Assembly (NCBI RefSeq): GCF_015689335.1
Contig: NZ_CP065053.1
Span: 3,472,001-3,536,000 of the forward strand
DNA: 64,000 nt
Reading direction: 5' to 3'
DNA from: Massilia antarctica
GTDB lineage: Bacteria; Pseudomonadota; Gammaproteobacteria; Burkholderiales; Burkholderiaceae_D
Notes under the pieces: model-generated
What the model saw: the letters and a program-made list of their open reading frames with translations, nothing else
What the model was told of the DNA's origin: nothing
Databases searched by the model: none
Translations under genes and position numbers: made by a program
In this document: positions 29,843 through 36,596 of the stretch, piece by piece
Layout: each line of letters begins with the position of its first letter
How positions within the stretch are numbered: position 1 is the first letter of the stretch

Positions 29843-31549
29843 ATGAACACCTTCATTCCAGGCAAAGACGCCGCCCTCGAATCGACCATCGACACCATGC
29901 AGGCCAAGCTGGCCGCGCGTGGCTTTATTCTGAACGAGTCGTCGTTGCTGCATGAGGTCGACGGCATCTGGTCGACCCATATGAAGGATAACGATTGTCC
30001 GATGCTGTTTTCCAACGGTAAGGGCGCGACCGAGCTGGCCGCGCGCGCCAGCGCCTACGGCGAATTTTTCGAGCGCCTCGGCACGCATTATTTCTGGACC
30101 CACTTTCACCTCGGCGAAACGCGCGCCAACCGGCCTTTCGTGCATTATCAGCAGGAACGCTGGTTCAAGCCGGGCCCGGACGGCGCCTGGCCAAGCGAGA
30201 TGCTCAATCCGGAATTGCACGCTTTCTATAACCCGGACAGCGAGATCGATGCCGAGGTGCTGGTCGACTTGAATTCGGGTAACGTGGAACGCGGCATTTG
30301 CGCGCTGCCGTACAAGCGCCTGCGCGACGATAGCGAAACCTTTATCCCGGTCAATATCATCGGCAATCTGTATGTCAGCAATGGCATGGCGGCGGGCAAT
30401 ACGATGATGGAGGCGCGCAGCCAGGCTTTGTCGGAAATTTTCGAGCGCCAGATCAAGTACCGCATCATCAGCGAAGGCCTGTGCCTGCCGGAAGTGCCGG
30501 ACGAGGTCATTGCGCGCTTTCCGAACATCAAGGCCGGCATCGATGGCTTGCGCCGCGCCGGTTTCGGCATCCTGGTCAAGGATGCTTCGCTCGGCGGCAA
30601 GTATCCGGTGATGAATGTAACCCTGGTGCATCCGAAAGACCAGGGCGTGTTCTCCAGCTACGGCGCGCACCCGCGCTTTGAAATCGCGCTGGAACGGGCG
30701 ATGACCGAACTGCTGCAGGGCCGCGCCCTCGATTCGCTGGAAGGCTTCCCTGAGCCGGGCTTCGACATGAGCGAGATCAACGCCGTGGCCAACCTGGAAA
30801 TCCATTTTGTCGATTCGAGCGGCGTGATCAGCTGGAATTTCATGGGCGATATCCCGGATTTCCCCTTCGCCGACTGGAATTTCAGCACCACCACGGAAGA
30901 AGACTACCACTGGCTGGTTGCATGCCTGCATGGCGAAGGCAAGGATATCTACGTGGCCGATTTCAGCGAGCAGGGCGCGTACAGCTGCCGCATCCTGGTG
31001 CCGGGTTTCTCGGAAATCTATCCGGTGGAAGACCTGGAATGGGAAAACAATAGCATCGGTAACCTGATCCGCCCGCAACTGGTGCGCCTGGATGCGCTCA
31101 GCGAGGAAGAGTGCGCGGCCTTGCTGGAAGACTTGCGGACCATGAACGTCAACGATGAGCGTCCGCTGTGGGAAATCCTGGGTCTGGCGATTCCGCTCGG
31201 CACGCCGTGGAAGCAGCTGCGCATCGGCGAACTGAAAACCCTGCTGGCGCTGGCTGTTGGCGACGAAGACGGCATCCTCGAAGGCTGCGACTGGATTCAT
31301 CACTTCAAGGACCTGGCGCCGGACCGCCGCCTGGTGTATCGCTGCATCGAAAGCATGCTCAACGTGGAAGATGTGGAAAACTATCGCCGCTCGATGGCCT
31401 TGCTGTACGGCGAAGAGACGGTGCGCCAGGCCGAGGCCTTGCTCGACCGCAGCGAGCGCTTCTTCGGGCTGGAAACGCTCGGCACCGACATGCAGGGCAG
31501 CGCCATGCACCAGACCTTGCTGGCCGCCTACGACAAGCTGTTCGCGTAA
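29843..31549 (+). CDS. ycaO: YcaO-domain protein, E. coli YcaO orthologue
   Basis: This 568-residue protein aligns along its length with E. coli YcaO as I remember it: FIPGKDAALE, FSNGKGATELAARASAYGEF, FERLGTHYF, IIGNLYVSNGMAAGNT, YGAHPRFEIALERAMTELLQ and GELKTLLALA. It carries the YcaO ATP-binding Glu/Gln motifs and a C-terminal TPR-like part. In E. coli the protein is linked to RimO-dependent beta-methylthiolation of ribosomal protein S12. It is not a RiPP cyclodehydratase by context, since no E1-like partner or precursor is adjacent. A strong terminator follows. Confidence 0.95.
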   Translation: MNTFIPGKDAALESTIDTMQAKLAARGFILNESSLLHEVDGIWSTHMKDNDCPMLFSNGKGATELAARASAYGEFFERLGTHYFWTHFHLGETRANRPFVHYQQERWFKPGPDGAWPSEMLNPELHAFYNPDSEIDAEVLVDLNSGNVERGICALPYKRLRDDSETFIPVNIIGNLYVSNGMAAGNTMMEARSQALSEIFERQIKYRIISEGLCLPEVPDEVIARFPNIKAGIDGLRRAGFGILVKDASLGGKYPVMNVTLVHPKDQGVFSSYGAHPRFEIALERAMTELLQGRALDSLEGFPEPGFDMSEINAVANLEIHFVDSSGVISWNFMGDIPDFPFADWNFSTTTEEDYHWLVACLHGEGKDIYVADFSEQGAYSCRILVPGFSEIYPVEDLEWENNSIGNLIRPQLVRLDALSEEECAALLEDLRTMNVNDERPLWEILGLAIPLGTPWKQLRIGELKTLLALAVGDEDGILEGCDWIHHFKDLAPDRRLVYRCIESMLNVEDVENYRRSMALLYGEETVRQAEALLDRSERFFGLETLGTDMQGSAMHQTLLAAYDKLFA

Positions 31550-33986: not shown

Positions 33987-35000
33987 ATGAAGACGAAACG
34001 CATCGCCATCCTGGCGTACTCCGGCTGCATGGGAATGGAAGTGTTTGGCCTGTGCGATACCTTGCTGTTGGCAAATCGGATCGCTGCGGCGGTCGACGGC
34101 GCCGGGCCGCCCTTGTTCGACGTCATCGTCACCAGTCTCGGCGGGGGCAATGTGACGGCCGCCGGCGGCATTCCGATCGGCACGCGCAAACCGGTCGCGC
34201 GGCCCGATTTGCTGGTGGTGCCGGGCATGGAACTGTCCGGCCGAGATGCCTGCACCGCGCCGATGAGCGCGTTCGCCCCCGAGATCGCTTATCTGGCCAA
34301 GGCGTTCGCCCGGGGCACGCCGGTGGCCGCCGTGTGCGTCGGCGCCTTCCTGCTGGGCGATGCCGGCGTGCTGGACGGGCGCCGTGCCACCACCTCGTGG
34401 CTGTTCGCGCCCGACCTCGCGCGCCGTTTTCCGGCGGCCATGGTCGAGCCGGCGGCCATGCTGGTCGAGGATGGCGGCGTGACCACCACCGGCTCGTTCA
34501 GCGCCACTTTCGATCTGGCGATGCATCTGGTGAGGCAGAGTGCGAGCGCCAGGGTGCTGCGGGCTGTCGCGCGCATGGGTTTGCTGGACGATCGACGCAC
34601 CAGTCAGGCGCCCTTCGTTGATACGCGCATGCTGTCCCAGGCAGCCGACACGTTCGCCGCCAAGGTGCACGCTTGGCTGGGTCAGCGGCTGGCCGAGCCG
34701 TACAACCTCAAGCAGGTGGCGGCGGCTTTTCATGTCAGCGACCGCACCTTGCTCAGGAGGGTGAAGCAAGAGACGGGGCAAACGCCACTGGCCTATTTGC
34801 AGCAGGCGCGCATCGGCAAGGCCAAGGTGCTGCTGGAATCGACCTCGCTGAGCGTGGCGCAGGTGACGGAACGGGTGGGTTACACGGATGTCGCGACCTT
34901 TGGCGCCCTGTTCAAGCGCAATGTAGGGCAGTCGCCAGCCGAGTATAGACGCAGGTTCAGAACGATTGGACAGGTAGGTATGGACAAGCGGCCTGCCTGA
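33987..35000 (+). CDS. GlxA-family transcriptional regulator (DJ-1 fold + AraC HTH)
   Basis: This 337-residue protein has an N-terminal DJ-1/PfpI domain (residues 1-195; AVCVGAFLLGDAGVLDGR elbow) and a C-terminal AraC HTH (YNLKQVAAAFHVSDRTLLRR, SVAQVTERVGYTDVATFGAL, FKRNVGQSPAEYRRRF). The domain architecture is that of GlxA/ArgR/GbdR regulators. The 91-bp divergent spacer with the DJ-1 gene is the likely operator region. The ligand is unknown. Confidence 0.93.
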   Translation: MKTKRIAILAYSGCMGMEVFGLCDTLLLANRIAAAVDGAGPPLFDVIVTSLGGGNVTAAGGIPIGTRKPVARPDLLVVPGMELSGRDACTAPMSAFAPEIAYLAKAFARGTPVAAVCVGAFLLGDAGVLDGRRATTSWLFAPDLARRFPAAMVEPAAMLVEDGGVTTTGSFSATFDLAMHLVRQSASARVLRAVARMGLLDDRRTSQAPFVDTRMLSQAADTFAAKVHAWLGQRLAEPYNLKQVAAAFHVSDRTLLRRVKQETGQTPLAYLQQARIGKAKVLLESTSLSVAQVTERVGYTDVATFGALFKRNVGQSPAEYRRRFRTIGQVGMDKRPA

Positions 35001-35113
35001 TTGAATCGTTGGATCAGGCGATGAGCAAGCTAAAGGCTTATCGGTCGATACTTGTGATGCGACGCAAATGGAAACGAGACTTAATTGAACTGCTGACGTC
35101 TTTCAAGTGGCGT

Positions 35114-36043
35114 TCAATTTGTCGTTATATGTTCTGCCTTCGACGAATGTCTATGTGCAGATTCGTTGCCTCCGCGTACCTCGGTTTTTCGCTGCCGCTC
35201 ATCCGCTTGCTGTAGAGACGGCATGGCGGGAAGTGACGCGTGTTTGATTGCATCCTTTGAAATAAAGATAATCCACCCGAACGCAACCAAAGCTATACCG
35301 AGCATGGCGAGTTCGGGTATCCAATGATACCATTCGCTCAGTTCGTCTACGCCTCGAATGCGATGAAAGTCGAAATAGTACTGATTTATGAAGGCGAGAA
35401 GATTGAACGTAGCATGCGCGACCATGCAGGTCCGTAGCGAGCCGGTGGTTGCATAAAGGTACGAGAGTGCAAGGGAAAACAAAAACGTGCCGATGTAGAT
35501 AGTTTTTGAGAAATGAAGTGCCGTAAAGATGGCTGCAGTTAAAACTGAACTCAGGAAAAAAGACTTGTTTTTGTAGATTGAGCGAAATACCAAGCCACGG
35601 AAAAACAGTTCTTCAAATATTGCAGGAAAAATCGCGCTGCAAATAATGAATGTAAAAACGTGGACTGAAAAGAAGGGATGAGAGGTGTATGCTTCAGGAT
35701 GATACTTGCCTAAACTATAGGCTGCTTCGAGGTCGTAATACGTTACGATTTTCGTGAAAACGGCACTTTCACCGAGGGTGAACATAAGTACTAGGATTCC
35801 AATGAGCACCGACAGCGCGACCTGTCGTTTCGTTATTGTGCTGCCCATAATCAAAGTAAACATTTTGCGGTTGATTTGAAATTGATGAGCGCTCGCTGCT
35901 GCCATTACGATGAACATGATCGACGCGCACAGATGGTCGGCATAGTACGCAGCGTTGGGCCAATATGCTGTTATGGACATAAATAGAACGGCTCGCAAGA
36001 CCATGCTGACAATTAATATTAGAAGTAAGATTTTTGGCGCCAT
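35114..36043 (-). CDS. CPBP intramembrane metalloprotease (Abi/Rce1-like)
   Basis: This 309-residue polytopic protein has the conserved motifs FEELFFRG (Glu144-Glu145, Arg149), TALHFS (His177) and HATFN (His210, Asn214). Such proteins process prenylated proteins or peptides and often accompany bacteriocin genes as processing or self-immunity factors. GC is clearly lower than the flanks. It lies downstream of a double-glycine leader peptide gene on the same strand, with a hairpin between them. The start is uncertain (no good Shine-Dalgarno). A charged 40-residue C-terminal tail is unusual. Confidence 0.88.
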   Translation of the reverse strand: MAPKILLLILIVSMVLRAVLFMSITAYWPNAAYYADHLCASIMFIVMAAASAHQFQINRKMFTLIMGSTITKRQVALSVLIGILVLMFTLGESAVFTKIVTYYDLEAAYSLGKYHPEAYTSHPFFSVHVFTFIICSAIFPAIFEELFFRGLVFRSIYKNKSFFLSSVLTAAIFTALHFSKTIYIGTFLFSLALSYLYATTGSLRTCMVAHATFNLLAFINQYYFDFHRIRGVDELSEWYHWIPELAMLGIALVAFGWIIFISKDAIKHASLPAMPSLQQADERQRKTEVRGGNESAHRHSSKAEHITTN

Positions 36044-36113
36044 TTTTTATTACTGCATCTCGTAATATTATATTATATTTATTTGATCGGTAATTGGCGC
36101 GTGTCAGATGTGG

Positions 36114-36147
36114 AAATATCGCGTCAGTGTTATTTGACGCGATATTT
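36114..36147 (-). terminator. Perfect 13-bp hairpin between GG-peptide and CPBP genes
   Basis: AAATATCGCGTCA (36114-36126) and TGACGCGATATTT (36135-36147) pair perfectly around GTGTTATT. On the minus strand it comes 29 bases after the peptide's stop and before the CPBP gene, so it could partly terminate and make peptide mRNA more abundant than protease mRNA. Confidence 0.75.
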
Positions 36148-36175
36148 TCAGGAATTCAGACGTTGAAGAAGATGG

Positions 36176-36349
36176 TCAGTGCAGCATGTCGTACAGACCG
36201 ATACCGATTTTCGAGCCCAGTTCGCCGAGCCCGTTAGCAATATCGTTAGTGCGGTTTCCCCAATCCGACTGCGCATTTGGGATAAGGTCGTACTTGCGGC
36301 CCCCGCCGCCCGACACCATCTCGATTTCTTCAGGGTTTAAGTCCTGCAT
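36176..36349 (-). CDS. 57-aa double-glycine leader peptide (bacteriocin-like precursor)
   Basis: The start is MQDLNPEEIEMVSGG, a classic double-glycine leader (conserved Leu, Glu-Ile/Val-Glu, Met-Val-Ser-Gly-Gly). Cleavage after Gly14-Gly15 would release a core of about 42 residues with RKYDLIPNAQ and a Gly-rich amphipathic end (NGLGELGSKIGIGLYDMLH). The ATG has a perfect AAGGAG 7 bases upstream. It lies upstream of a CPBP protease on the same strand. The C39-type ABC exporter expected to cut it is not in the window. Bacteriocin or signalling-peptide activity is inference. Confidence 0.8.
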   Translation of the reverse strand: MQDLNPEEIEMVSGGGGRKYDLIPNAQSDWGNRTNDIANGLGELGSKIGIGLYDMLH

Positions 36350-36596
36350 AGTGCTTCTCCTTGTGGTAGCCGTTATTGGCCGAGGTAACTTTATAATGGG
36401 AGGGGAATTTTCGCGCTGAGTTTTCTCAAGTACTTTTGGGAAATGCGTAAAATTACATTTGCTCGTGATGTCGCGCGTGCGCTTTTCAGGATCTCTGGCG
36501 CTTCGAGTAGATGTATCGCCTCGACCGGACGCAACGATTCCGGCTCCGCGAAAAGCCAGTCCATTTTCGACCTTGGAACATGATAAGCTCGCGCCT

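What the first reader, a model, noticed from the sequence alone, without database searches (positions are those of the whole stretch)
35114..36349. Double-glycine leader peptide beside a CPBP protease
A 57-aa gene encodes MQDLNPEEIEMVSGG with a perfect Shine-Dalgarno, then a 13-bp hairpin, then a CPBP intramembrane protease, all on the minus strand in a low-GC patch. GG-leader peptides are matured by C39 exporters, and CPBP proteins often accompany bacteriocins. The pair could be a compact bacteriocin/self-protection or signalling unit.
Basis: partly seen in the sequence, partly recalled or inferred. Interest (0 to 1): 0.75.

Follow-up and report, generated by a model that had tools for sequence, protein, structure and literature searches.

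The report
Satellite microcin-like peptide with protease partner
This soil-type bacterium carries a small secreted-peptide gene paired with a membrane protease, most likely a toxin and its antidote that borrow an exporter encoded elsewhere in the genome; a protease as the antidote would be unusual in Gram-negative bacteria.

Summary
Observation confirmed. Window 36349-36176(-) encodes a 57-aa peptide with a textbook double-glycine leader and Shine-Dalgarno; a 13-bp hairpin and an intact CPBP protease (36043-35114) follow. The peptide is under purifying selection and the pair recurs: of 10 peptide places found in 392 family genomes, 9 have a CPBP next door and the tenth ends at a contig edge. 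One pair, in another genus, was in neither search model.

At 6 of the 10 places a C39 ABC exporter and HlyD protein lie nearby, including a second locus of this genome 0.36 Mb away. There the exporter is 93-94% identical between species but the peptide only 40-66% and CPBP 44-55%, with higher synonymous divergence. In one species the same exporter carries a different GG peptide and another membrane protein instead of CPBP. Peptide and CPBP thus move together, with CPBP in the immunity slot.

Best reading: a satellite microcin-like bacteriocin plus CPBP immunity protein, exported in trans. Killing, immunity and trans export are inferred, not shown. The layout resembles class II microcins and Moraxella mcbABCI; CPBP immunity is known from lactic acid bacteria.

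The parts
36176..36349 (-). 57-aa double-glycine precursor; leader residues 1-15, predicted core 42 residues with C-terminal GSKIG (GxxxG) and YDMLH
   Evidence: homologues
36357..36362 (-). Shine-Dalgarno AAGGAG of the peptide gene
   Evidence: read directly
36111..36150 (.). intergenic hairpin, 13 perfect pairs, 8-nt loop
   Evidence: stems also seen between the genes of the other Massilia pairs folded
35114..36043 (-). CPBP (Rce1-like) intramembrane protease, 309 aa; EELFFR at 144, FTALH at 173, HATFN at 210
34959..36574 (.). approximate extent of the cassette-specific DNA: absent where the AraC-family gene directly adjoins GDPD in G007, G008 and G016

Best explanation
A two-gene satellite bacteriocin cassette. 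The 57-aa precursor is exported and cut after Gly-Gly by a C39 peptidase-ABC exporter with HlyD and a TolC-type channel encoded elsewhere, most likely the exporter at C1:3144957-3148473 of this genome. The released 42-residue core, with a C-terminal GxxxG helix, would act at the inner membrane of related competitors. The adjacent CPBP protease would protect the producer by cleaving or blocking the peptide in the membrane. Shown here: a real conserved peptide gene, a recurrent pair, an intact CPBP, exchange of peptide and CPBP together, exporters beside related pairs. Inferred: antibacterial action, the immunity role, export in trans.
For: Consensus GG leader, 0 of 60 shuffles; purifying selection. 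9 of 10 peptide places have a CPBP next door on the same strand, the tenth being 273 bp from a contig end; 8 of 10 CPBP rows have the peptide (read). G356, of another genus and in neither model, has both genes plus HlyD and C39-ABC. 6 of 10 peptide places have a C39 exporter within 5 kb. In the genus sample 4 of 92 PF02517 rows lie within 5 kb of a C39 row, and these 4 are the paired CPBPs; 0 of 27 other C39 loci examined show a CPBP motif within 6 kb. Cargo swap on a conserved exporter with dS of cargo well above dS of exporter and flank. Catalytic motifs in 9 of 9 CPBPs. Precedents: CPBP immunity PlnI, PlnL, SkkI (review passage); microcins sharing one exporter and exporter promiscuity (passages).
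Against: No activity, expression or immunity data. The core is slightly acidic (-1; related cores -1 to -5), whereas many class II bacteriocins are cationic (recalled). No exporter adjoins the window pair, and trans export is untested. A CPBP near a bacteriocin gene can serve signal production instead (SilX). The tree does not show that window-type and locus-A CPBPs are sisters. NG86 dS may be inflated by the low GC of the cargo. The peptide model is weak (mean pLDDT 66.3).
Confidence: 0.55

Rival explanations
1. Peptide signal with a maturation protease: the GG peptide is a pheromone, and CPBP finishes its processing or aids its release, as proposed for SilX, MroQ and SagE.
For: SilX of Streptococcus anginosus is needed for bacteriocin activity through the SilCR signal and gave no immunity (passages). 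Peptide and CPBP stay together.
Against: No kinase, regulator or receptor gene seen with the cassette; the AraC-family neighbour also stands at cassette-free sites. In G008 a different GG peptide uses the same exporter without a CPBP. Two CPBP rows of 10 lack the peptide (G010, G248), odd for a dedicated maturase, though the G010 gene has lost its usual start.
Confidence: 0.15
2. Bacteriocin, but CPBP is a second processing enzyme that trims the core during export rather than an immunity protein.
For: Conserved C-terminal YDxxH (12 of 16 rows) could be a recognition site; CPBP proteases of several exosortase-like systems cut C-terminal helices (family names; function recalled).
Against: C39 already removes the leader; no other candidate immunity gene lies beside the window pair; in the G008 swap the CPBP position is taken by an unrelated 161-aa membrane protein.
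Confidence: 0.12
3. Immunity-only or decaying remnant: the pair is kept mainly for protection against neighbours' peptides and its own peptide is no longer exported.
For: No adjacent exporter; G016 lost HlyD and C39 at locus A but kept peptide and CPBP; G010 kept a CPBP without the peptide at the window's site.
Against: The peptide gene is intact with SD and under purifying selection, leader included, in three genomes; this genome has two exporters.
Confidence: 0.1
4. Two-peptide bacteriocin split over two loci: the window peptide and the locus-A peptide act together.
For: Both carry the GxxxG/YDxxH tail; in the 17-genome genus sample each window-type pair without its own exporter lies in a genome with a locus-A exporter (G000, G002, G004).
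Against: G006 and G356 show one peptide each; G010 has the locus-A peptide but no window-type peptide; the co-occurrence is confounded by relatedness.
Confidence: 0.07

Closest known systems
mcbABCI bacteriocin locus of Moraxella catarrhalis (PMC2761928; abstract and section 7 read)
   Same: Secretion genes mcbA and mcbB, then a short GG bacteriocin gene, then an immunity gene, as in locus A of this genome
   Different: Immunity protein McbI is 74 aa and unrelated to CPBP as described; the window pair has no exporter beside it
Class II microcins (PMC9746304, PMC10233263; passages)
   Same: GG-leader peptide, C39 ABC exporter, membrane fusion protein, adjacent candidate immunity gene; one exporter can serve two microcins
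   Different: Known immunity proteins are 51-216 aa; here the candidate is a 309-aa protease, above the 250-aa limit of the cinful pipeline
Abi/CPBP immunity proteins PlnI, PlnL, SkkI of lactic acid bacteria (review passage PMC8538875; Kjos 2010 itself not held)
   Same: CPBP protease as immunity partner of GxxxG bacteriocins
   Different: Gram-positive hosts; direct sequence similarity to PlnI was not tested; here one peptide, not two
Pneumococcal blp region (PMC4860687; passages)
   Same: Variable bacteriocin and immunity cargo at a shared locus; CAAX proteases counted there as immunity genes
   Different: Quorum-controlled Gram-positive region; no regulator seen here
SilX of Streptococcus anginosus (PMC9298176; passages)
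   Same: CPBP protease encoded beside a bacteriocin cluster
   Different: Reported role is signal-peptide production, with no immunity effect

Membership tests
Double-glycine leader peptides | Short leader with hydrophobic -12, -7, -4 and Gly-Gly at -2/-1 | tested here: met
   L-12, I-7, V-4, GG; conserved in window-type relatives
Double-glycine leader peptides | Cleaved and exported by a C39 ABC exporter | not testable with these tools
   Two C39 exporters in the genome; cleavage needs an experiment
CPBP / Rce1-like intramembrane proteases (PF02517) | Pfam match above curated cut-off | tested here: met
   67.9 bits against 22.4
CPBP / Rce1-like intramembrane proteases (PF02517) | EExxxR, FxxxH and HxxxN motifs | tested here: met
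   Present in 9 of 9 paired or syntenic CPBPs
CPBP / Rce1-like intramembrane proteases (PF02517) | Rce1-like membrane fold | tested here: met
CPBP / Rce1-like intramembrane proteases (PF02517) | Proteolytic activity | not testable with these tools
   Needs biochemistry
Class II microcins | C39 ABC exporter and membrane fusion protein encoded with the peptide | tested here: inconclusive
   Absent beside the window pair; present beside 6 of 10 related pairs and elsewhere in this genome
Class II microcins | Adjacent immunity gene (known ones 51-216 aa) | tested here: inconclusive
   An adjacent membrane protein exists but is 309 aa and its role is unproven
Class II microcins | Antibacterial activity | not testable with these tools
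   Needs an assay
Class IIb two-peptide bacteriocins | GxxxG motif in a helical part | tested here: met
   GSKIG in the window peptide; GxxxG in the tail of 13 of 16 family rows; helix 29-56 in a weak model
Class IIb two-peptide bacteriocins | Two adjacent peptide genes | tested here: not met
   One GG ORF by pattern in the window and in each related locus scanned
Abi/CPBP bacteriocin immunity proteins | CPBP gene next to a GG bacteriocin-like gene | tested here: met
Abi/CPBP bacteriocin immunity proteins | Confers protection against the cognate peptide | not testable with these tools
   Needs expression in a sensitive strain
Quorum-sensing peptide modules | Linked sensor kinase, regulator or receptor | tested here: not met
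   None seen in the cassette; the AraC-family neighbour also occurs at cassette-free sites G007, G008, G016

The most novel reading that the evidence does not exclude
Gram-negative bacteria have a polymorphic microcin system whose cognate immunity factor is a glutamic intramembrane protease rather than a small blocking protein. Peptide-protease cassettes are swapped at a conserved exporter chassis, and detached satellite cassettes such as the window pair are served by that exporter in trans.
Probability: 0.4. Interest if true: 0.72.

Novelty: new variant of a known kind. Interest (0 to 1): 0.52.

Why it matters
It would carry protease-type bacteriocin immunity from lactic acid bacteria to Gram-negative microcins, and offers natural cognate and non-cognate pairs on one conserved exporter with which the disputed role of CPBP proteins (immunity, processing or signalling) could be tested. 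It also shows why such pairs are overlooked: the peptide matches no Pfam or NCBIfam family, the partner is longer than a published immunity size limit, and the exporter can lie elsewhere in the genome.

Tried and rejected
Chance ORF: rejected (0 of 60 shuffles for the strict pattern; conservation; dN far below dS).

Link to the YcaO gene at 29843-31549 as a TOMM system: rejected; it is the ribosomal S12 accessory YcaO (NF040716, 843.5 bits, cut-off 700).

Mobile-element origin: tblastn of the CPBP in the plasmid collection gave one remote Rubrobacter hit and of the peptide in the phage collection none; the reverse combinations were not run. PADLOC gave nothing for either protein.

Window-type and locus-A CPBPs as sister groups: not resolved. 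Shared promoter motif between loci: only short shared words, mostly within one locus type.

The peptide profile against solved structures gave only chance-level rows; the CPBP profile reached Rce1 4cad at E 0.0032.

Limits. Of 49 C39 rows in the genus, 5 adjoin the pairs; 27 other loci were scanned by pattern (26 fetched, plus L025) and the remaining rows, mostly weaker, were not read. That scan missed the long GG precursor at L025, so its empty lists are not proof of absence. Hairpin z-scores for six pairs with well-set boundaries run from -1.35 to -5.11; two locus-A pairs (G004, G010) were first folded with over-extended CPBP starts (z -0.21, -0.87) and refolded without z; G356 was not folded. 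In alignment A2 the L029 row starts one codon before its ATG. NG86 gave no dS for 11 of the 25 cargo pairs.

Literature: the searches listed no paper on a CPBP as Gram-negative microcin immunity or on these Massilia peptides; lists were capped and the library is open-access only. antiSMASH predicted an undescribed bacteriocin cluster in Massilia antibiotica (passage, PMC7988111).

Full report
What is there. The window is G000:C1:3472001-3536000 of a one-contig 7.43-Mb genome; names given to its closest protein relatives make it a Massilia. On the minus strand a 57-aa ORF (36349-36176) with SD AAGGAG begins MQDLNPEEIEMVSGG. It is followed by a hairpin of 13 perfect pairs and a 309-aa CPBP protease (36043-35114). 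The cassette is 45.6% GC in a 62.8% window. The listed ORF of the divergent GDPD gene (36459) is over-extended; the start shared with relatives is ATG 36597, leaving 247 bp between it and the peptide gene.

Is it real? The strict leader pattern with SD occurs once in the window and in 0 of 60 shuffles. The ORF is conserved in two further genomes in the corresponding neighbourhood, with changes concentrated at third positions. The protein database returned 16 members of the peptide family, the window's own included, and 18 CPBP relatives at E 1e-20 or better.

The pair. With a 16-row peptide model (A3) and a 5-row CPBP model (A4), 392 genomes of the family were searched. Peptides were found at 10 places in 7 genomes and CPBPs at 10 places in 7 genomes. 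Nine of the 10 peptides have a CPBP next door on the same strand; the tenth, G002:C222, lies 273 bp from its contig end. Eight of the 10 CPBP rows have the peptide; the two misses are G010 at the window's syntenic site and G248. Most of these sequences had helped to build the models; G356, in another genus, had not, and there the peptide (E 1.2e-9) and CPBP (E 2.7e-55) lie side by side next to HlyD and C39-ABC genes.

The exporter. Six of the 10 peptide places have a C39 exporter within 5 kb: locus A of G000, G002, G004 and G010, plus G006 and G356. The window-type pairs of G000, G002 and G004 show none, though the G002 and G004 contigs end 1.7 kb and 0.3 kb upstream of the peptide; nor does G016. 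The exporter genes of G002 and G006 read in more than one frame, so intact exporters are not shown there. In this genome the complete set lies at C1:3144957-3149877: HlyD, C39-ABC, a 67-aa GG peptide and a CPBP. Both C39 domains of this genome keep the QTE..ECG, HFVV and DPAVG stretches that hold the catalytic residues (assignment recalled). Genus-wide, 4 of 92 PF02517 rows lie within 5 kb of a C39 row, and all 4 are paired CPBPs.

Cargo swapping. Locus A occupies the same chromosomal setting in six genomes (G000, G002, G004, G008, G010, G016). Against G000, where present, C39-ABC is 93-94% identical and HlyD 81-95% by piece, but the peptide is 40-66% and CPBP 44-55%. For G000 against G004, dS is 1.90 in CPBP, 0.47 in C39-ABC and 0.18 in the flanking nucleotidase; for G000 against G010 it is 1.09 in the peptide, 2.17 in CPBP and 0.57 in C39-ABC. 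In G008 the same exporter carries a different, Gly/Ala-rich GG peptide and a 161-aa membrane protein, with no CPBP found; G000 has a 67%-identical copy of that 161-aa gene downstream of its CPBP. G016 has peptide and CPBP but no HlyD or C39 there. At the window's own site the cassette is absent, with the AraC-family gene directly next to GDPD, in G007, G008 and G016, and absent in a rearranged setting in G014. This is the pattern expected of toxin-immunity cassettes on a fixed export chassis, with CPBP in the immunity slot; the function is inferred from gene order and divergence.

The proteins. In alignment A3 the tail GxxxG is present in 13 of 16 rows (the three G006-type rows lack it) and YDxxH in 12 of 16 (also missing in G010's locus-A peptide); the G356 peptide, not in A3, has both. 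Locus-A cores add two or three cysteines. EExxxR, FxxxH and HxxxN are kept in 9 of 9 CPBPs. The CPBP model is confident and matches Rce1 and SpdC well above the next rows, although Foldseek alone gave only E 0.016. Window-type CPBPs with that of G006 form one clade (99/98), locus-A CPBPs another (99/99); their mutual relation is open.

Mechanism. Most likely: export and trimming by a C39 exporter in trans, membrane-directed action on relatives, and self-protection by CPBP cleaving or blocking the peptide. In print, class II microcins use this gene set with promiscuous or shared exporters and small immunity proteins (passages); mcbABCI has the same order; CPBP immunity is described for PlnI, PlnL and SkkI (passage), and CAAX proteases are counted as immunity genes in the blp region (passage). 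Against this, SilX shows a CPBP serving signal production (passages), the core is slightly acidic, and no assay exists, so bacteriocin action remains unproven.

Noticed in passing
L149:10690-11549 (G008): At the locus-A exporter of G008 the cargo is a 74-aa Gly/Ala-rich GG peptide plus a 161-aa membrane protein; a 67%-identical copy of the latter follows the CPBP of this genome's locus A (L024:12153-12638).
   Followed up: yes
L025:7070-7705: The second C39 exporter of this genome has its own long GG-leader precursor (about 211 aa, MQVLDKEVLRQLVGG..., Gly-rich) and a 187-aa membrane protein with relatives at four other C39 loci.
   Followed up: partly
L131, L132, L133, L134, L144: Near C39 exporters of G010, G016, G002, G008 and G015 lie a different set of GG peptides (MRNLTSTELQHVYGGG type) with Lys/Ser/Cys-rich cores.
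   Followed up: no
window 35003-35018 and 36525-36540: An imperfect 16-nt inverted repeat (81%) lies near the two ends of the cassette; it may be chance or a trace of insertion.
   Followed up: no
L027:210-1334 (G002): A transposase-like ORF lies just upstream of the G002 copy of the pair (identified by eye from the ORF only).
   Followed up: no
   Followed up: partly
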